This document shows, one piece after another, positions 21,412 through 53,798 of a DNA stretch of 64,000 nucleotides. The stretch's first letter is position 1. Every line of letters starts with the position of its first letter. The stretch is from positions 4,626,441-4,690,440 of the forward strand of contig FN649734.1 of the NCBI GenBank assembly GCA_000310025.1, read 5' to 3'. The notes under the pieces are model-generated. The model made no database searches and had not been told where the DNA came from. It was given only the letters and a program-made list of their open reading frames with translations. A program made the position numbers and the translations under genes. This stretch comes from Ectocarpus siliculosus (lineage: Eukaryota > Sar > Phaeophyceae > Ectocarpales > Ectocarpaceae).

Positions 21412-24400
21412 ATGAAACATAAAAATTATCATCGCCAACAAAACAAAAAGGTTAAGCCGGTAGTCGTTCCGCCAGCGTTGGACAAGCTGTGGTCGGTCAC
21501 GTGCGCGGCCCACTTCTGCCCGATCAAGAAGAGCGACGAGGATTTTCTCAGGGGCAAGCAGCTGGAGATCCTTGGGAACTTCGGCGTTGCTCCCGGCACC
21601 ATGCGGAAGAGGGCGGTGAGATGTTAGTGCAGCAGTACAGTCTGGTTATCGCGGCGAGAATTTTCTTGGATTTTCTGGTATACGGTACCCCCGTCCTTGT
21701 CCCTTCCCCACGCCCCCCCCTCTCTCTGCAGCTGCCAAACGTGCTGTCGTGGAACGATCAGGCAAATATTTTTTTTTCCCTCAACCAATGTCCCACACTA
21801 GTGCATGGTGCTTCTGCGTTACGTGAGATGACAGTAGTATGTAGTAGTATATAGTCCTCCGTTGCGGAACGGGGTGCGCAGTCAAATGAGCCCTACGCCC
21901 GCCCCCCCCCCTCTTCTCTCCCCTCGTCCAATTGGTTTGCGAACCTCTACTGCTGCAGGAGGAGTTCGAAGGCACTTTTTTGCACCCCACCATGGGCCCG
22001 GAGGATATCGGAAAAGGTGGGTGGTCTGATGTTTGTTGTGCTATCTTCGCACGGGAACGACTTTTGGTTTTGGATTCTCCTCGGTACGTTGGAAAACTCC
22101 CTGCTACGCTGGTCCTGGCGATTTCTCGATTAGTCAGTGTGCATGCTGATTTTAAGTCAATTAGCAATATCCCACATGGGGAAGGACGTACATCTCGGCG
22201 TCAAACGTCGTTTCAGGCGGGGGGGGGGGGGGGGGGGGGGAACCCCAAGAAAGGGGGGGGGGGGCCAATCTTTTGGCCCGGGCCCAAAAGGAAAACCCCC
22301 CTGGAAAATTTTTAAAATTTTTTGTAACCCGGAAAGATCCCTATTGGGGTTGGGGAATTTCCCCCACGGCCCAGGAAAGGACCCGTCCCCGTCATTTGCC
22401 CCGGGATGCCGAAAGGTTCTAATTGAAAAACAAACCGGGGGTTTTAAGCCCAAAACCCCTCCCACCCCACCCCCCTTTTTTCCCGGAAAACTTTCCCCCC
22501 CGTTGCGGGCCCAAAAATCCCCCACAAAAAAAAAAACCAAGAGCTCAAACTGGGTTGGGGGGCCGCCCCCCGGCGGGCCCCNNNNNNNNNNNNNNNNNNN
22601 NNNNNNNNNNNNNNNNNNNNNNNNNNNNNNNNNNNNNNNNNNNNNNNNNNNNNNNNNNNNNNNNNNNNNNNNNNNNNNNNNAATGGCCAATTTCCCACAG
22701 GGGGGAGGTATTATATTTGGGGGAAAAAAGCATTTTGGGGGGGGGGGGGGGGGGGGGGAGGGTACTCAGAGGAAGGGGCGGGCGTGCCAATCGTTTGGTC
22801 TGGGCACGAACGGAACAGCCCTCTGGAATATTTCTAATATTTCTTGTACTCTGGAAGTATCGCTATTGGTGTTGGGTAGTTCGCCCTACGGCCACGGAAG
22901 GCATCCGTCCGCGTCAGTTGCACCGGGATGTCGGAAGGTTCTGATTGGAGATCGAAGCGGTGGTTTTGATGCCAAGACGCCATCCATCGCGACCCTCTGT
23001 TTGTCCTGAAACTCTTCCTCCTCTGTCGCGGCACGAACAGTCCTCGACGAGGAGAAGAGCAAGGAGCTGAAGCTGGGTCTGGTGCCGGCGCTCGGGCGGC
23101 CCTACGAGGACCTGTGGGCGGAGGAGAGCTACGTGGAGTCGCTGGCGAGCCGGTCGTGGTCGTCCCTGGCGAGGGACTCGTCGCAGCACGTGGGTCTTTT
23201 GTGGCTGTTTGTTTATTTAGTGCTGGTATCGATCGGCCGTGCCGCCAGGGGGGAGGGGCACCAGTCTTTTGTGTGGGTAGCGTTTGTGAGGGCTGCTGTA
23301 GCTTTCGTTGCGGTTTCTATTGGTGCTGTTATCGATCGACTGCGCCGCCAGGGTGGACACCAGTCTTGTGGCTGCATGAGGGCTAGCTTTCGTCGTTGCC
23401 ATGCATACGTGTTTTTTCTTTTCTGGTCTTTAGTTGTTGTCGTCGTCATTATCGTTGGCCGGTTTCGTTTTGTTCCCCCGGCGGCGGCGTGTTTCGCGCC
23501 TGCTTGATATATCCCCCAACACCATTTTTTGTTTATTGAGTTGAGAATCACCTCTCCCTTTGCATTTTGTTTGTTTCCACGCGGGAGATAGACTGGTGTG
23601 ACCGACCAATCCTACAGCACATAGTAGAACACCTTTTGCTCGTGAGTAATGCTCCGCTGTTGAACCGTCCTCCTCCAAAACCGTTGTTCAGGCGGGTGCC
23701 TCCACATCAGGAGCATCGGCGGCGGCGGCGGGAGCGGGAACAGACACGGGAGCAGACGCCGCTGCGGCGAAGGCGGGGGGGGGGGGAGGCTCCGCGGAGG
23801 GAGAAAGGGGCAGCCTCCGGGCGGGCGGGCGAAAAAACAGCGGCGGCGGATTCGGCTCCTTCAGCGGAGCGGCGGCGCTGCTTCTTCACGGTTCGTCGCC
23901 ATTGGCAGGTGGCGATGGGGGGGCGGACGGGGCGGACGCCGTTGTGGGTTCCTGCTTGCCGATGGCGAGGGACTGGACGGAGGTGGTACCGTCGCACGAC
24001 GAGGCTAGCTTCCGGCGGTGCCTAGCGGAGAGCAGGTCGAGGGGGGGCGTTTTTGCGGGGAGGAGGGGGTTTTACTTGCAGAGGGGCGGCGATATCGACT
24101 GGGAGGCGGAGGAGGTGGAGAGGGAGAAAGAGAGGAGGAGGGCCGCGGCAGGCTTGGAGGTGAGCGAGTGCCGTGTGATGATTGGTTGGGGGCGGTGCTG
24201 TGCGTACAGTCTCTTGTCGCCTACCGGGCGCTCAACTGTTGATTCAGTTATTCGTGTGGGTGAAAGACGTTTTGTGCTGTTTTTTTTTTAGCTGGTGTTT
24301 GTGCGTGTATCGTAGGCTCTCTCGCCTCCCGGGCGCTCAACAGCAATTCAGCTTTGCGTGTGGGTGGAAGACGTTATTCTTTCCATATTTATTTAGCTGG

Positions 24401-27400
24401 TGTAATATGCGTGAACGCGCTCTCTCTCGCCTGCGGGGCGCTCAACAGTTTTTGCTGGGAGTGAAAAACTTTTTTTTTGTTTTTCCCGCTTTCTTTTTTG
24501 CTGTGGGTGGCATCTCGAGAAACTAGGCTCCGATGCGTCCGGTCTAACTGAGACGGGGCCTCGGAAAAGCTTGGTTCGGTGCCGCGTGTGTAGGGTGCAA
24601 GTGTGCACAGCGTAGGTTACGGGGTAGGTGTCCGCGCGACGGTTGTCCCTCGAAGGGCTTGCTCTTGCGTGTCCGGTGGGAGACGCGGGGTTGACCGGTA
24701 ATCCGGGGCCATCGTTTATCGCTCTGAGTTTTCTTTCGGCGGTCGTTTTTCGTCTCGGGCGTGCGTGCTGTGTGTGTGACAATCTGCTAAGCTCTGTGTG
24801 CCGATCGCTGCTGCTTGTTTGGACGCCCACCGCAGCTCGGCGGTAGTGTCGTTGGTTTGTTGTCTTGCTTGTGCGGTGTGAAGGAAGCGGGGCGTTGGGG
24901 TTGATACATATCGGGCACGCTCCCCCCCCCGGTTGTCCGGTCAAGGGGTGAAACTGTTCGATCTCTTGATCAAGACACAGTACATAAGATTGTCTCAATG
25001 CCTCCGTTTCGCCTGTAGATCCTTGTCCTGGCGTATTGCGTTTGTGCGTGTGCCGGGGTTGTTTCTCGTACCGATGTCTCTTTTTTTGCTTGAATGTTAG
25101 TCGTGTTTTTTTTTTGTTTTGTGTGAATGGGTGATGCTGTTGCACTACAGCAGCACAGTAGTATTGTTTTCGATCGTTGTTCGTGTGCGTCGTGTCATTG
25201 TGGGTGCTGTCCTCACGGCTTGAGCCTGCGTCGTGTGCCGTCACCGACGTGTTGCCCCCCTTCCACCACCTTGCTTGATGATTCTCCGTCCCCCCTGTGT
25301 TGTCTTTCGCCCTTTTGTTCCTGCTGTGCGCTGCGCTCCCACGCGTCGTGTGCGCCATGTTAGGCGCCACTACCACCCGACCTTGGGAATAAAGGAGCGA
25401 ACGGGAGCTCGCGTAGTCGAAGCCTTCCGGGCACGAAATCAACAACAAGAACGCCATCGGGTGAGATACCACGGGTCGTAGCAGCGGTAGTCTACACTAC
25501 TCGTGGCAATATTTTTTAGGTTGGCATTCATTGCACAGCAGTCGGGGTCCGTCAATAAGCGCGGTGTAGTGACAGTCTCCCTCGACCTCTCTATTGATGG
25601 GGTGGTAGTACACAGTAGCACCAAACAATGACGCGACCACCTCCATTTCATTGAGCCCCCCGCCCGAGTCATCCTTGTGAAATGTAGCCTGGGCCGGCGA
25701 AAACCCGGCATATCACTCTTCCGTCCCGGCATTGTAGGGATGCGAGGCTAATGGCCTAATGACTACGGCATGCGTTTACACCCCCTACCTGCCTCAAAAG
25801 GCTCCCTTGTCGAGATCGACGAGGGCGTCATTGTCGCGAAAGCTTTCCGCTCGAGGGGCGAGAAGGACAGGGCAGCGGCGGCGGCGGCGGCGGCGGCGGC
25901 GACGGCGGCGACGGCGGCAGACATTAACACCAAGAACGCTCCTCAGCACTCGCGGCCGCCGCGGAAGGCCAAGCGCTGCGCCGCTTCTCGCACGGAGATA
26001 GGAGCTGGCCCCGGCGCTGCGCCCGCCGTAGCCGAGTGCCCCTCAAGAACAGGAGCGGGGGCCCCGGGGTACTCTCCCGTTGTTGGTTGCGGGGGTTCCT
26101 CCGCTGCCGCGGGGACCCCGCGGGCCGCTTGGCCTGCGAAGGACGGGAATCGTGCGGTGACGTCCGGGGGCGACGGAGGGGCGGTGGCTGTCAAGAAGAG
26201 GACGAGCGTGAGGCTGAGGGGAGGGGCCGCCGCGGCCACAGCGGAGCCTCCTCCCTCGGCTGTTGCTGCTGCTGATGCTGATGCCGCTTTTTCCGGTGGC
26301 CAGTGCCACAGGCAGGAAGAAGAGGGGCAGGAGGAGGACATTGACGAGGTGTCCTGGGAACTGAGACGGCTCGCCAGGGACGAGGTCAAGGTTAACGCCA
26401 AGAATCTCTACGCTCTCTCCGAGCTAGGAGGTGCGTTGTAGAAGCTTGTGGTGCGAAGCCGGGTGTGGGCGAGGTTGTAGATGTACTCATATGGCACGAG
26501 AGGGGGTGGGGGGGTGATGGGCGTAGCAGTACCATGTGGCGTGCCCCAATCCTATTACCTTTTAATACATGTCCCTTACGAGACAGGGCGCTCGTACCGC
26601 TCGGTATGGGATGCCGCCAACATTCTGGCACTCTCGAAACCTGTCTACCGTGTTTGGATGTAGGAGAAACGATTGCTGATCTTGTCTCCGTCCCCATCGT
26701 TCAACCTAAGGTGTTCTTGCTGATGTTGTCCCCCACCCTTTTCATTCGGCCGGAGGGCAGGTCCGGTCGTGGCTTCCTCTTCTTGCCTGGAAAAGTCTGC
26801 ATTCCAGAAAATATTCAGAGCGTTTCCGCTATTCAGTGATGTAGCGGTACATGCATGTTTACATCAGATACTTAGGTCACTTCGTATTCGTTGCTTGAGA
26901 CCTGGTAATATCTGAACCCCGTGTTTCCATTTGTGTTTGTGTATTTTGTTTAAGAAATGTGTTCGGGTTGCCGCTATGCCGTATGGACTGTGTTTTGTCG
27001 ACGTGAGCAGCCTACTGTCGGCAGGAGCGGAAGGTGTACCAGAGCGTGTTCGACCGCGACGAGTGGGCGAAGGATGTCCTCAGTAACGCGCTCCGCCTCA
27101 GCGAAGTGGGCAAGACCGTCGACCTGAAGGGGAAGGTGTGTGTGCGTGCGTGTTTTCTTCCTTAGCATCGACCGCGCTAACCGGCTGGCCAATGGAAAGA
27201 CGAGGGTGTGTGTGTGTTCTCGGGGGAGGCAACAAGCCGTCTAGTCGCATGGGCCGCGTTCGCGGTATTGTTGTTGTGGTGGGGGTGGGTGTTACGTTCT
27301 AAACTTGAACTTTCGAGGAAAAATAATCGTCTGCCGGGCTTTGGTGTCCGTGGGATGTTTTCTCTCACGATCCACATTTTCTGAAACGATCCCCCCCACC

Positions 27401-30400
27401 TCTCAACTCATGCCCAATCAAAACCAGCGGGCAAAGCCCCGTGGCGTCGGACTCGCGGACGACTTCCCCTATCACGACCCGACCCAGCTCCCCGTCCTCG
27501 AGGCGCTGCGGAAGCAGACGGTGGCCTACCAGCACCACCAGCGCAACCAGGAGGAGATGGGGGGCTTCGGGCTGGCGGAGATTGAGCAGGAGCGTGCTAG
27601 GCGGGAGAAGGTGGCCAACGAGGCTACGGCGGTCGCGGAAGCGAAAATGAAGTAAGTCTGTGGTTGTTGTTGTTATTGTTGTTGTTGTCAGTGTTGTTGT
27701 TGTTGGCCTTGGTGTTGGCATTGTCTCTACACGAACGAACCGGTCTGAGCTCCGCCTTTGGCACCGTCACTTCCGTCCTATTCTGAGCGAAATCTCACAA
27801 CAGCGAACAAAGTAACATAAAGAGCGTACGAGTAACAATGCCCCAACATCCCACGACAAACCAACAGGGACTGGGAGCACGCGCGGCTGGCGGTAGGCCG
27901 GAAGGGGCAAACCGGGAGGGGACGCGGCATCCCCATCCCCGGGGGCGTGGCGCACCCGTTCCTCCTCGACAAGAAGACGGCCGACTTCCTGTACTCGGTA
28001 GGGACGGGCGACGAGGTGGAGGTTAAGGACGAGTGGGACGTCTGGTGCCGGGCGAAGGTGGTTGCTGTTCGCGGGGAGGGGGGATGGGTGAGTGGTCCGG
28101 GAAGGGGGGCACCGCTATGTCCGTGCAGTGTGTCGGGGGGTGTACTCACAGCTGTGTACGCCGTAGTCGTTGGACCCTTCGCGGGGTGGGGTGACCGACT
28201 AACCTCGCTGCGGAGTGAATTTCTGGTCCGTGGAGGAGAATGGTGGAAACTGTTCTACGCACGAGAAACTAGCGCGCCGGATCGATCGGCGATATAGGTG
28301 TCTTTGTTATCGCTCTTGACGACGACGGCGCTCACTTATTGAAATGATCCCGGAAAATGAAAAACAATAACGGAGCCAGACCACCGCGTCCAAGAAAGGG
28401 AGGAAGCACGTTACGAAACCGGACCATCGGTTAATAAAATGACCAGGACAAACACGGGGCCGAATGAATACGTTCGATGTCCTGGCGTTCCGCACTTGGT
28501 GCATTGCCCACCCCCCCCCCCCCCATTAGATGGGATGCCCAAATAACCCATGACATGTCTGGGTTGGCACATCAAACGCAAGGATAGTGACACTACCAGC
28601 TCTGGTTCATCCTTGCGAAACGTGCGTGGGCTGCGCCGGCGAAATCGCTCCGTCCGGCATCGTGTAGGGATTCGAGGTCATTCGTCTAACGACTACACCA
28701 TGCGTTTTACATGAGTATACCCCCCCCCCTCGTGTGTGGGATATCTAATCTCTCGTCGTGGCTTCTTTTTCGACACAGGACCCCAAGAAGGACACGAACG
28801 TGCTTCGTGCTGTGAAGGTCAGCTTCGAAGGCAGTGGTCCCGCGATGGATGCTTGGTGTTCGGTTGATGGAGGCATGGTGGCTAAGCCCGGGACTCATCT
28901 TCCTCTTGTAAGTGTCTCGCATGTATCGGTGGTGGTGGTTGTGTTTTTTGTTCCCACTCGTGATTTCGAGGCATTTTTTTTCGTCGCAATTTTGGTGTTG
29001 TTGTTGTGGCAATCTAACTTGTGTGGTTGGGTGATGGAGTGCGCTCGGGCTATTTTGTAGAGTATAGTATTGTCTGCTGTCGTCGTCAATCGATGTACTA
29101 GCGCTGTCTCCTCCTGTTGTCTCACCTTTTTTGTCTTGCCGTTTTTGTTGCAATCCTTCTTGCACTGCGCAGTCCAAGCGACAGCGTGCCCTGGCGGCCA
29201 GAAAGGCCAGCGTGGCTGCGGCTGCGGCGGCGGCGGCGGCCTCGTCGAGGGCGGGCGCCAAGCCAATCAGAATCCGCGCGTTTCACGGCCCCCGGCCCCC
29301 ACCGGGCAAGGACTCGACAGCAGCGGTCTCGTCAAACGGCGCCGCTAACGGGAGCGCAAGCGCAGACTCCGAAAAGGTTGACGTCCAAGGTGGTGCTGCA
29401 GCCGCTAGCGCAAAGCGCAAACGGACAGGGTCATCGGACGACCGTCGACAAGGCAAACGGCCGGCAGCCGCCGGCGAGGGTTTTGGAGGAGGGGCGGGGT
29501 GCGTGGACGGGGAAACGCCGGCGGTGCCGGCGGCGGCGACGGCGGGTATGGTTCCTAGGTGTGCGCTGCGTGCAAGGGCTGGAAGCGACAGCGGGAACGA
29601 GAGCAGCAGCAGCACCAGTAGCGACAGCAGCAGCAGCAGTGGGTACAACGAAGTTAACGCGACAGGAAGGCCACGGAAGACGGCGGCGAGCTTCCGTCAG
29701 GCACGAAGGGCGAGCAGCAGCAGCGGCAGTAGTGGTAGCGGCGGGGTTGGCGGCAGCGGCGTCGGTGGGCTTGATACAATGGCTACTCGCTTAAGAGGCA
29801 CGGGCGACGGGGGTGGCAGCGTGAAAGCAGCAGCGGCAGCAGGAGAGGCGGTATCGAAGGAAGCAGGCATAGCTCGGGACAGTAGAGTGGGCAGGAGAGG
29901 CCGTGGCGGAGCGGTCGTCCAACAGCGCAAAACGGCGCGGAATGCTGCTCACCACAACAGCAGCAGCCACTCTTCCCCATCGGACCCCTTGTCCTCTCGC
30001 CGCACGATGCCTCTCGGCCGGGGCCCGTCGCCGCCCGGCGACGTCGTCGTCCCGAACGGAAGCGTGCCGGCAGCAGTAGTTGCCGCTTCTCCTTCTCCCT
30101 CGTCGCCTTCTCCGTTCGGCCGGAGGAGTAGTGGAAGAGTCGCCGGTCTTTCGAACGGTACCGGGGTCGGGGGGGGCACAGCCAAGGACCTCCGGTCGGT
30201 CAACAGCGGCGGCGGCGGCGAGTCGGGGGTTAACAGCTCGAAAGGGGGAGCGTCCGTTTCCGCGGCGGTGGCGGCGGCGGGATTGTCAGCACCGGCGCCG
30301 GACTTTTCTCCGTCCTCGACGACGGCGACGGCGACGCCGCCGACACCGCCGCTGTCTACCGCTACTACTAGCGCCGCCGCCGCTGCCGCTGCGGTGACAT

Positions 30401-30951
30401 CGGCCGGGAACGACAGCCCCAGGACGTCGGGACCCTGGGCTTCCGCGGTCACCACGACGCTCACGTCGTGGTCGGCGACGGCCTTGGGTAGGATATCTCC
30501 GACCTTGACGAACCGGTTCGTGGCAGCGGGGACAAACCCGGCGGCGGCCCCCGCAACTGCGGCAGCAGCCGCCTCTGCTGCGTGGCTCCCGGACAGCAAC
30601 AACGGCGCCGTCGGCGGCGGCCACAATGCCGGGCAGCCAAGGATCGGCGAGTTGGCGAACGACGCTGCTGTTGTTGGGAGCAATATTGTTCCGCCCAGCG
30701 GCTGTGACACTCTTGGTGGCGGTGTAAAGGCGAACCCCCATTCTGGTGCGGTTGTGGCTGCTGCCAACGGCCAGGCGGCGATTTGTTCAACTCTTGCTCC
30801 TCGCGATGCCGCCGCTGTTCCTACCACTGCTGCTGCTGCTTCCGCTGCTGCTGCTACCGTCGTAGGGGCATCTCCTACCCCTTCGGGCTTCGCTGCGAAC
30901 GTTAGGGCGAGCGCGACGAACGGTCTCAAGGTTGTATTCCGCCGGTCGTAG
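21412..30951 (+). CDS. ADA3: ADA3-like SAGA acetyltransferase-module protein with a Tudor/chromo-barrel-like domain, about 1323 residues
   Basis: Exons: 21412-21615, 21959-22016, 23041-23189, 23692-24159, about 25815-26430, 27011-27135, 27428-27651, 27868-28087, 28779-28907 and 29173-30951; lengths sum to 3972 with every phase matching. Three regions recall the ADA3/NGG1 family, which anchors GCN5 and ADA2 in SAGA: LDKLWSVTCAAHFCP (residues 23-37), LVPALGRPYEDLWAEES (101-117; family pattern PPLGxxYxxxWAxED) and EVSWELRRLARDEVKVNAKN (near 470-490; family pattern DEVxxELRxxQxELxxxxxxN). Residues about 655-722 (GDEVEVKDEWDVWCRAKVV, then KVSFEGSGPAMDAWC and AKPGTHLP) have Tudor-knot/MBT-like logic. 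The last exon encodes a 590-residue Ala/Ser/Gly/Thr tail with a basic KRKRTG patch. Exon 5 could start at another acceptor, and the N-terminus may lie upstream at 18.4-19.4 kb. ADA3 assignment is fairly firm, Tudor probable. Confidence 0.72.
22217..22740. other. False assembly gap with duplicated degraded flanks
   Basis: The 100-base N run at 22582-22681 is flanked on the left, after a G tract at 22218, by a homopolymer-distorted copy of 22760-23090, and on the right, before a G tract at 22737, by a distorted copy of about 22165-22215. The constant offset is about 525 bases. The real locus is probably one G tract with no missing sequence. It falls in the second intron of the ADA3-like gene, so the exons are unaffected. 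Confidence 0.88.
22862..22978 (+). repeat. Dispersed repeat family C, copy 1
   Basis: The segment with ggaaggcatccgtccgcgtc, agttgcaccgg and ttttgatgccaag aligns in order with 47135-47232 and 54131-54258. It lies in intron 2 of the ADA3-like gene. No terminal repeats or coding capacity were found. Confidence 0.55.
23222..23400 (+). repeat. Two-copy tandem repeat, period about 103 bp
   Basis: The word ttatcgatcg followed by ccgccagg and caccagtctt occurs first near 23227-23272 and again about 103 bases later. The duplication is confined to intron 3 of the ADA3-like gene and contributes no exon. Confidence 0.6.
24200..24520 (+). repeat. Three-copy tandem repeat, period 105 bp
   Basis: The word cctnccgggcgctcaac starts at 24220, 24325 and 24430, exactly 105 bases apart (one substitution in the third copy). 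Units also share cgtgtgggtg, aagacgtt and agctggtgt. The array follows the donor of exon 4 in the ADA3-like gene and is intronic. Confidence 0.8.
25671..25772 (+). mobile_element. Dispersed SINE-like repeat family B, copy 1
   Basis: It shares gtcatccttgtgaaa, gcctgggccggcgaaa and a tRNA-like end (tgtagggatgcgaggc, then taatgactacggcatgcg) with 28556-28712 and the inverted copy at 44709-44833. It ends about 40 bases before exon 5 of the ADA3-like gene. Confidence 0.65.
28556..28712 (+). mobile_element. Dispersed SINE-like repeat family B, copy 2
   Basis: About 130 bases align with the reverse complement of 44709-44833: caaacgcaagga, ttcatccttgcgaaa, cgccggcgaaatcgctccgt and attcgaggtcattcgtcta. 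On the minus strand the 28.7-kb end resembles tRNA boxes A and B. It lies just before exon 9 of the ADA3-like gene. Confidence 0.7.
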
Positions 30952-51616: not shown

Positions 51617-52331
51617 GTATATATATATGTCGAAGCATGACCGACTGAGGACAGACCGTGAGGAAACGCAGCCAGCCGGCAACCAGCAGTGGGCTAGTCC
51701 TTCCTGCTGCCTGCTTTATTTTCATCTTGCATCATCCCTTATGACGCTGCTGCTGCTGTGCTCTTATGAGTCCGCTCGGCAGCGTCATCCTGTGGACTAA
51801 ATATTTGCGGTGTTACATTCCCCAGAAAGAACGTTCGCGGAAAGTGTTGTAGAGAAGAACAGACAATGCTGCTGTTGCGCCCGACACGTTGGTCTGCACT
51901 CTGCAACAGTTGTAGTTCAGTGCAGGTGGTTGATGAGGAGATGGAAATGCCAAGTGCTGTGTTTCAGCCGGCGTATTTAGCTGGGCGAGCCACATGAATC
52001 TGTTTGTGATTATTATGCGGGGGAACTTCTTCAACTACCATGCTGGTTGGTACTTTGCAACTACGGGACCCCTCAGGCTGCTGTCTCTTCATGTGTAGCG
52101 CAGGCCATACCACAGCCAAGACACGCCGCCGTGTCGTTGACACCCAGACCGAGAGAGAAGAGTGACAAAGAGACTTGGCCCTGCAGGTTTTCCCTCTCCA
52201 AAAACCCTCGAGTTCACCACAACGAGGTCTACGAGAGGAGAGGGCATAAAAAAGGGCCATTCTCTTGCTTCACCCGGGGAGACAACCAACCAGCACGCAC
52301 ACGTCAAACATTCGAAATCGTCCTCCTCATC

Positions 52332-53798
52332 ATGCACCTGTACCCGAAGCGGGCTCTCCTCCAAGGGGCGGAGCTGGAGATCTTCAAACTCCTCTCCTTT
52401 GGCGCCACTCCAGAGCAATGGGCGGAGTGGCTCCGGGCTCCGCTCGAGCACGCCGCGGCCCGCGGCAATCTTGGCCTCGTCGAGAGACTGCTCAAGGCCG
52501 GGGCCAACGGCGGGGCAGGGTGGAGAGGATGCCGCGGGCGGACAATGCTCGACGCCGCTGCACTGGGCGGAAACCCGGACGTGGTGGCGACGTTGCTTGC
52601 ATCGGGTTGTGCTTCGGATGTGAACGTGGTGTCGGTGTTGTCGAGGAGGTCCGCCCTGCACGTGGCCGCTGTGTGCGGCCACGAAGCGGCAGCGAAGAAG
52701 CTGATCATTGCCGGAGCCGACGTAAACCGGGTCGACCCAGGGGATGCATGCGTCTCGTTGCATGTCGCCGTTGAAGGGAGACACGGTGACTTGGTAGACT
52801 TGTTACTGATCGGCGGAGCTTGTCCCAATTCTCGCACCAGGGTCGGCCGTACGCCGCTACACCTTGCTGCTGCAAGCGGCAACAATCGTGTTGTGTCGAC
52901 CCTGCTCGGCAGCAGCGGCAACAATCGTGTTGTGTCGACCCTGCTCGGCAACGTCAGGACCGATGTCGACGCGCTCGACAGCAGGGGGTTTCCCCCACTT
53001 ATGGTGGCGTCTGAAGGAGGCCACTGTTCTACCGTCTAGGCTCTCCTGCGGGCTGGTGCCCGCATGACCCTACGTCATGCTGGAGCCCATCTTCGCATGA
53101 CGGCAATGGATATAGCGGCATCAAATGAACACGTTGGGGTGATCGAAGCTATTGTTGAGAACGGTGGTAGCGTGAGAGCTACCGACCCCCTCGGCTTGAC
53201 TGCTTTGCACCACGCCCGCGGGGGAGAGGTGGCAGACGTGCTTCTCGATGCTGGGGCCGATGTCAGCGCCAAATTATGTCCGACATTGCTTGGGTTTACA
53301 CCTATCCTCGTGTGCGCCATGGACAACAGGTGCGAAGCCGTGGTTGCCCTTTTGAAGCGGGGGGGCAACGTCAGTGACACGAGCTGCGGTGGAATGTCCG
53401 CGTTGCATTTGGCATGTGGAAGTCTGTCGCGAGGTATTGACAGAACGGTTGACCTCCTGTTGAGATGGGGGGCGTCGGAAACCGCAGTCAACGACGACGG
53501 TCTAACACCCTCCGACATCCTTAAAGCGACGACCGCCGAATCCAATGCACGCGACGCCGGTGGCGGTGGTAGCACCGAACATCGTGTAGGCGACCCTGCA
53601 ACCCGCCATGACTCGTTGGCACAAGAGATGCAGCGCGAGAGTGCTGCTGGCGCGTGCTCCGGCGGACCGGACGTGGCGCCGCCGTTGCTGGCTGGTCATG
53701 CTTCGCGCGAGGGCAGAGAGGGAGAGGGGAGCGCATCCCAGCGGCAGCGGCAGCGATCGAACCGAGGCAGCGATCGGACGAAATCTACCGGGTCATGA
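52332..53798 (+). pseudogene. Single-exon ankyrin-repeat gene with an in-frame stop codon
   Basis: From ATG 52332 (MHLYPKRALLQGAELEIFKL) the frame encodes classical 33-residue ankyrin repeats (GRTPLHLAAASGNNRVV, GADVNRVD) to a TAG at 53037-53039, inside a repeat at GGHCSTV. The same frame resumes at once (ALLRAGARM) with further ankyrin repeats (LGLTALHHARGG, GMSALHLACGS) to 53798. A 39-bp perfect tandem duplication (52875-52913 and 52914-52952, last codon AGC versus AAC) adds an extra SGNNRVVSTLLG block. Another frame at 53800-53997 ends GLESEEVFRTIVCFL, which resembles a natural C-terminus and would need a frameshift or short intron. It is either a recently broken gene, a sequencing error, or a 235-residue truncated protein. 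It differs clearly from the short-period ankyrin gene upstream. Confidence 0.7.

What the first reader, a model, noticed from the sequence alone, without database searches (positions are those of the whole stretch)
21412..30951. ADA3-like protein carrying its own Tudor/chromo-barrel-like domain
Ten phase-consistent exons join ADA3-type motifs (LVPALGRPYEDLWAEES and the EVSWELRRLARDE helix) to a segment with GDEVEVKDEWDVWCRAKVV and KVSFEGSGPAMDAWC. Family knowledge: animal, yeast and plant ADA3 lack a Tudor domain, and the SAGA histone-methyl reader is the separate subunit SGF29. A single polypeptide combining both would be a rewired acetyltransferase module.
Basis: partly seen in the sequence, partly recalled or inferred. 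Interest (0 to 1): 0.78.

Follow-up and report, generated by a model that had tools for sequence, protein, structure and literature searches.

The report
ADA3-like protein with Tudor-type barrel
A multi-exon gene appears to join a divergent relative of the gene-activation adaptor ADA3 to a small chromatin-barrel domain, but the ADA3 half is only a remote match and the barrel looks unable to read methyl marks in the usual way.

Summary
The gene model holds with corrections: 11 exons, not ten, at 21412-30951 (+), joined by GT-AG introns in one 1,360-aa frame. Codon preference favours the model frame in 10 of 11 exons; exon 5 is tentative. Library profiles are silent: no Pfam family for the first 768 residues or three pieces, no real PDB match.

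More sensitive tests split the claim. The barrel is the stronger half. A profile of nine barrels from the same genome scores the spliced exon 9-10 segment at 36.3 bits, reached by 0 of 5,000 shuffles and within the range of left-out members. Of eight such barrels sent to Pfam, six match MBT, three over its cut-off. The ADA3 half is remote: N block reached by 1 of 60,000 shuffles, C block by 500 of 60,000.

"Rewired SAGA" is not supported: the genome keeps SGF29-type Tudor exons, and the barrel keeps one of three compared cage aromatics.

Best reading: a divergent ADA3-like subunit with an added, probably non-methyl-reading barrel; a new domain combination if the ADA3 identity and a single transcript are confirmed.

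The parts
21412..21615 (+). exon 1 (aa 1-68); LW...FL part of the ADA3-N block at about 21478-21561
21959..22016 (+). exon 2 (aa 69-88)
   Evidence: codon margin slight
23041..23189 (+). exon 3 (aa 88-137); ADA3-N core LVPALGRPYEDLWAEES at 23079-23129
23692..24159 (+). exon 4 (aa 138-293), low complexity
25364..25460 (+). exon 5 (aa 294-326), tentative: no codon support, but needed for the frame between the best sites of exons 4 and 6
25801..26430 (+). exon 6 (aa 326-536); start of the ADA3-C-like block at about 26319
27011..27135 (+). exon 7 (aa 536-577), rest of the ADA3-C-like helices
27428..27651 (+). exon 8 (aa 578-652), linker
27868..28087 (+). exon 9 (aa 652-725); first half of the barrel from 28007
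28779..28907 (+). exon 10 (aa 726-768); second half of the barrel
29173..30951 (+). exon 11 (aa 769-1360 and stop); Ala/Ser/Gly-rich tail

Best explanation
One gene encodes a divergent ADA3-like adaptor whose chain continues past the ADA3-like helices into a Tudor/MBT/chromo-barrel-type domain and a long, probably disordered tail. Shown here: the open frame, the exon order and the membership of the barrel in a family of barrels of this genome. Inferred: that exons 1-7 are an ADA3 part that ties Gcn5 and Ada2 to the rest of SAGA (the KAT module binds the core via Ada3, PMC8194025 passage), and that the barrel gives that module one more contact to chromatin, nucleic acid or a partner protein. 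Reading methylated lysine through the usual aromatic cage is unlikely; SGF29 is the better candidate for H3K4me3 reading.
For: Phase-consistent GT-AG exons; codon frame in 10 of 11 exons; nine exon matches at the locus and one chance match elsewhere, so single copy as far as that search sees. ADA3-N 13.5 bits, 1 of 60,000 shuffles, and ADA3-C 7.6 bits, 500 of 60,000, in ADA3 order; ADA3-N glocal 0 of 300. Barrel 36.3 bits, 0 of 5,000; 27.1 and 25.3 bits, each 0 of 3,000, with only six or three Pfam-tied relatives; 31.8-38.0 bits in nine leave-one-out rebuilds against 24.5-73.5 for the left-out members. Seven of nine pairwise tests with native barrels reached by at most 1 of 1,000 shuffles. Six of eight relatives sent to Pfam match MBT at E 0.0079 or better. 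Exons 6 and 7 hold no Met and the first ATG of the exon 6 frame, 25770, lies in a repeat, which argues against a second gene starting at exon 6.
Against: No Pfam Ada3 match. ADA3 scores lie below every left-out true member (13.5 against 24.6 or more; 7.6 against 17.4 or more). ADA3-C glocal 40 of 300, extended 63 of 3,000. Exon 5, the link between exons 4 and 6, lacks codon support. Textbook chromo-barrels gave 13 of 1,000 and 11 of 300; two of nine pairwise tests with native barrels were not significant, 146 and 91 of 1,000; the place is not among nine Tudor-knot matches in the genome. The query that found the native barrels was written after seeing the domain.
Confidence: 0.58

Rival explanations
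1. The barrel protein is not ADA3. Exons 1-10 are one gene of a chromatin-barrel protein whose resemblance to ADA3 is chance or very distant.
For: No Pfam Ada3 match; scores below every true member; ADA3-C weak; with some 24,700 Pfam families to choose from, 1 in 60,000 for one block is not overwhelming.
Against: Two blocks in ADA3 order, N block 1 of 60,000, C block 500 of 60,000; exon 3 ORF first of 1,414 window ORFs.
Confidence: 0.25
2. Two genes: exons 1-4 encode the ADA3-like N part, exons 6-11 a separate barrel protein.
For: Exon 5 lacks codon support; intron 4 is the longest, 1,204 bases; an AATAAA lies at 25388; ADA3-C, which would tie exon 6 to exon 3, is weak.
Against: No Met in exons 6 and 7; the first ATG of the exon 6 frame lies in a repeat with 41 further matches listed; a full frame can be built.
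Confidence: 0.15
3. Rewired SAGA: ADA3 has taken over the methyl-reading role of SGF29.
For: The barrel belongs to a superfamily with methyl readers.
Against: Five SGF29_Tudor places over the cut-off elsewhere, one close to human SGF29 as recalled; barrel reads F, S, M at three cage positions.
Confidence: 0.05

Closest known systems
ADA3 / Ngg1 / TADA3 (Pfam PF10198 covers the C-terminal part)
   Same: Order of an N-terminal block ([FL]W...FL and G..Y...W.[EQ][ED]) and a later DE[IV]..ELR helix block
   Different: No Pfam match; weaker than every member tried; low-complexity inserts; a barrel and a 592-aa tail follow
Tudor/MBT/chromo-barrel domains (Pfam MBT PF02820, Tudor-knot PF11717, MSL3_chromo-like PF22732)
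   Same: GDxVxVKD...W..AxVVxV...VxFxG....DxW pattern; scores with native relatives that match these Pfam families
   Different: No direct Pfam match; longer loop between the halves; two of three compared cage aromatics lost
SGF29 tandem Tudor (Pfam PF07039)
   Same: A barrel-type reader in the same acetyltransferase module, if ADA3 is right
   Different: No match to PF07039; SGF29-type exons lie elsewhere in the genome

Membership tests
ADA3 | Pfam Ada3 (PF10198) match | tested here: not met
   No match at E<=10. Recalled human, yeast and Arabidopsis sequences gave 2.5e-28, 9.4e-47 and 5.4e-4, the last below the cut-off.
ADA3 | N-terminal block around P.LG..Y...W.EE | tested here: met
   13.5 bits, 1 of 60,000 shuffles; glocal 0 of 300; exon 3 ORF first of 1,414, 9.9 against 7.2; lower than every left-out member.
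ADA3 | C-terminal helical block | tested here: inconclusive
   6 of 1,000; 500 of 60,000; 40 of 300; 63 of 3,000.
ADA3 | Binding to Gcn5 and Ada2 | not testable with these tools
   Needs protein work.
Tudor/MBT/chromo-barrel superfamily | Profile relationship to members | tested here: met
   Indirect, through native relatives: 36.3 bits, 0 of 5,000; 25.3 bits, 0 of 3,000, with only the three over the MBT cut-off.
Tudor/MBT/chromo-barrel superfamily | Direct Pfam match (MBT, Tudor-knot, Tudor) | tested here: not met
   not among nine Tudor-knot places in the genome.
Tudor/MBT/chromo-barrel superfamily | Aromatic cage for methyl-lysine (MRG15 positions recalled) | tested here: not met
   F, S, M at the three positions that align cleanly; the fourth falls on C beside a W and is uncertain.
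Tudor/MBT/chromo-barrel superfamily | Five-stranded barrel fold | not tested
   The folding tool takes proteins that the DNA gives letter for letter; I took the spliced domain not to be one and did not send it.
SGF29 | Pfam SGF29_Tudor match | tested here: not met
   none for this protein or place.

The most novel reading that the evidence does not exclude
An ADA3 subunit that carries its own Tudor/MBT-type barrel, so that the Gcn5 module of this lineage has a second, built-in chromatin or partner contact besides SGF29. The domain would have come from a barrel family spread through the genome and then lost its methyl cage.
Probability: 0.45. Interest if true: 0.58.

Novelty: new variant of a known kind. 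Interest (0 to 1): 0.42.

Why it matters
If true, ADA3, a scaffold for which the passages seen here describe no reader domain, has gained a chromatin-barrel domain in at least one lineage. It also shows that a lineage-specific profile can find barrels that Pfam misses.

Tried and rejected
Led nowhere: Pfam on the protein and pieces; PDB sequence search; viral contigs for relatives; ADA3 in the genome by family and by single proteins (none; one chance match, E 3.47). None of these five found the window's own gene, so they cannot exclude another ADA3. Yeast Gcn5 domain in the genome: no match, which shows only that the search is weak for distant genes split by introns. Pairwise tests of the domain with single textbook Tudor, MBT, SGF29 and chromo-barrel sequences: best 37 of 1,000 shuffles; hhalign to textbook chromo-barrels: probability 0.63 percent. 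The best non-self match of the domain in the genome (C27, E 0.118) reads as no barrel and was dropped. Of ten places, nine went into the native profile; C138 (E 0.848) was dropped, and C456 was cut before a stop. C26 was not sent to Pfam (eight of nine were).

Rejected: SGF29 replacement; a real duplication of exon 3, since 22219-22579 is a degraded copy (264 of 360 identical) of 22741-23102 next to an N gap.

Papers: passages of PMC8071052, PMC4532415, PMC8194025, PMC8396726, PMC8638923 and PMC7784034; others in search listings only. The listings of searches for ADA3 with Tudor, barrel, stramenopile or brown-alga terms showed no report of this combination; one search found no paper and the library lacks most subscription papers.
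Full report
What was claimed. Ten exons at 21412-30951 were said to join ADA3 motifs to a Tudor or chromo-barrel segment, giving a rewired acetyltransferase subunit.

The gene model. Joining the exons failed at exon 7; with the acceptor at 27011 the eleven exons read in one frame of 1,360 residues, joined by ten GT-AG introns. In a leave-one-exon-out codon test against intron triplets the model frame was the best of six in 10 of 11 exons; exon 5 was the exception and exon 2, 20 codons, won by little. G+C is 67 percent in the CDS and 46-56 percent in the introns. Exon 5 is needed to keep frame between the best sites of exons 4 and 6, so this joint is the weakest of the model. Six in-frame AGs that would skip it lie in 25752-25960; by eye they are poor acceptors. 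An abridged protein found nine exon matches at the locus and one chance match (E 0.354) elsewhere in the 189-Mb genome.

Library searches. Pfam gave no family at E<=10 for the first 768 residues or for three pieces. PDB gave nothing for the barrel and four chance-level rows for the abridged protein. By the finding's own terms this counts against it, so more sensitive tests were made.

ADA3. Human TADA3, part of yeast Ngg1 and part of Arabidopsis ADA3 were typed from recall; Pfam Ada3 recognised them at 2.5e-28, 9.4e-47 and 5.4e-4, the last below the curated cut-off. PDB search with the yeast part showed Ada3 of 6tbm and 9ynv (the species names K. phaffii and C. thermophilum are recalled). Five-sequence profiles were built for an N block and a C block. 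The N block scored 11.9 bits in residues 1-140, 0 of 1,000 shuffles, 0 of 300 in a glocal test, and 13.5 bits with 1 of 60,000 shuffles in whole-segment scoring. The exon 3 ORF ranks first of 1,414 window ORFs, 9.9 bits against 7.2 for the next. The C block gave 6 of 1,000, 40 of 300 and 500 of 60,000; an extended C profile gave 63 of 3,000 and its segment is not among the eight best printed. Every left-out true member scored higher (24.6 and 17.4 bits or more). Pairwise with human TADA3, the N part gave 7 of 1,000 against the whole and 0 of 1,000 against residues 131-220, the C part 157 and 93 of 1,000. ADA3-like is a fair name; membership is not established. No better ADA3 rang in the genome, but those searches also missed the window's own gene and prove little.

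The barrel. Textbook chromo-barrels gave weak scores: 13 of 1,000, 11 of 300 glocal, 13.7 bits against 50.6-102.5 for left-out members. Pairwise tests with single Tudor, MBT, SGF29 and chromo-barrel sequences were at best 37 of 1,000. A consensus query of my own then found ten places in the genome, seven at E<1e-3. Reading them showed barrels of the type VKD...W.EA.V...VHY.GW...DEW...DS.RIAP; in two, C17 and C23, an intron seems to part the halves, as here. Three of the ten (C23, C17, C2) overlap sub-cut-off Tudor-knot matches. A profile of nine of them scores the spliced window domain at 36.3 bits, 0 of 5,000 shuffles, best shuffle 10.4, and the whole protein at 27.1. Pairwise, seven of the nine are reached by at most 1 of 1,000 shuffles and two are not significant (146 and 91 of 1,000). 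With the six members that match Pfam MBT at E<0.01 the domain scores 27.1, with the three over the MBT cut-off 25.3, each 0 of 3,000. The two unspliced exon ORFs are the best two of 1,414 in the window on all three profiles. In nine rebuilds, each without one member, the domain scored 31.8-38.0 and the left-out members 24.5-73.5. Of eight native barrels sent to Pfam, six match MBT at E 0.0079 or better, three over the cut-off, and two match nothing. The query was written after seeing the domain, so some selection by likeness is built in; the Pfam-tied subsets are the check on that. I conclude that the window domain belongs to this barrel family.

Cage. In an alignment with MRG15, whose cage positions are recalled, the three positions that align cleanly read F, S, M here, Y, W, W in MRG15. 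Of seven native barrels in that alignment, four keep three aromatics (C17, C23, C16, C474a); C474b reads Y, W, V, C2 Y, H, Y and C456 F, L, H. The fourth position falls on C beside a W and is uncertain. The usual methyl-lysine pocket is probably lost.

SGF29. Five places in the genome match SGF29_Tudor over its cut-off. One, on C457, reads RRSNILTLPRP...VGSRVMTLYPQTTTFYPATISGP, close to human SGF29 as recalled; three others have the core VLAVFPDTT and one VLAVYVDTT, the last with a stop at the edge of its match. The genome therefore seems to keep the separate SGF29 reader; whole SGF29 genes were not rebuilt.

One gene or two. Exons 6 and 7 hold no Met. The first ATG in the exon 6 frame, at 25770, lies in a short repeat at about 25669-25780, for which 41 further matches were listed, 40 of 919 candidates having been scored. 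This makes a separate gene starting at exon 6 unlikely without a further 5' exon. It does not exclude one.

Mechanism. SAGA's acetyltransferase module binds the core surface via Ada3 (PMC8194025, passage). If exons 1-7 are ADA3, the barrel sits past the helices that by homology face Gcn5 and Ada2, and would offer an extra contact (inference). The 592-residue tail is 22 percent Ala, 15 percent Ser and 14 percent Gly, with a basic stretch that could be a nuclear signal (inference).

Literature. Arabidopsis has two 1,211-aa ADA3 proteins; the authors describe an ADA3 domain with six strands and five helices and a conserved C-terminus of strands, and do not use the word Tudor (PMC8071052, passages). 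In Plasmodium only GCN5, ADA2 and a possible Tra1 were found, and a PHD protein is said to replace SGF29 in H3K4me3 binding (PMC8396726, passages). The listings of six searches showed no report of the present combination.

Verdict. A well-supported reading frame, a well-supported barrel domain, a plausible but unproven ADA3 half, and no support for a rewired methyl reader.

Noticed in passing
22219-22579: Degraded copy (264 of 360 identical) of 22741-23102, including the start of exon 3, beside a run of N; looks like low-quality read ends in the assembly.
   Followed up: partly
25669-25780 and 28607-28711: Two related short repeats in introns 5 and 9; for the first, 41 further genome matches were listed. 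On the minus strand it looks tRNA-derived (SINE) by eye; ARAGORN calls no tRNA in the window.
   Followed up: partly
L011-L018, L020: Barrel domains of the type VKD...W.EA.V...VHY.GW...DEW...RIAP on several contigs; of eight sent to Pfam two match no family and three more stay under every cut-off.
   Followed up: partly
L006-L010: Five SGF29-type Tudor exons in one genome, one near human SGF29 as recalled and four with a VLAVFPDTT or VLAVYVDTT core; Arabidopsis has two SGF29 genes (PMC8194025, passage).
   Followed up: partly
51981-53795: Ankyrin-repeat reading frames downstream in the window.
   Followed up: no
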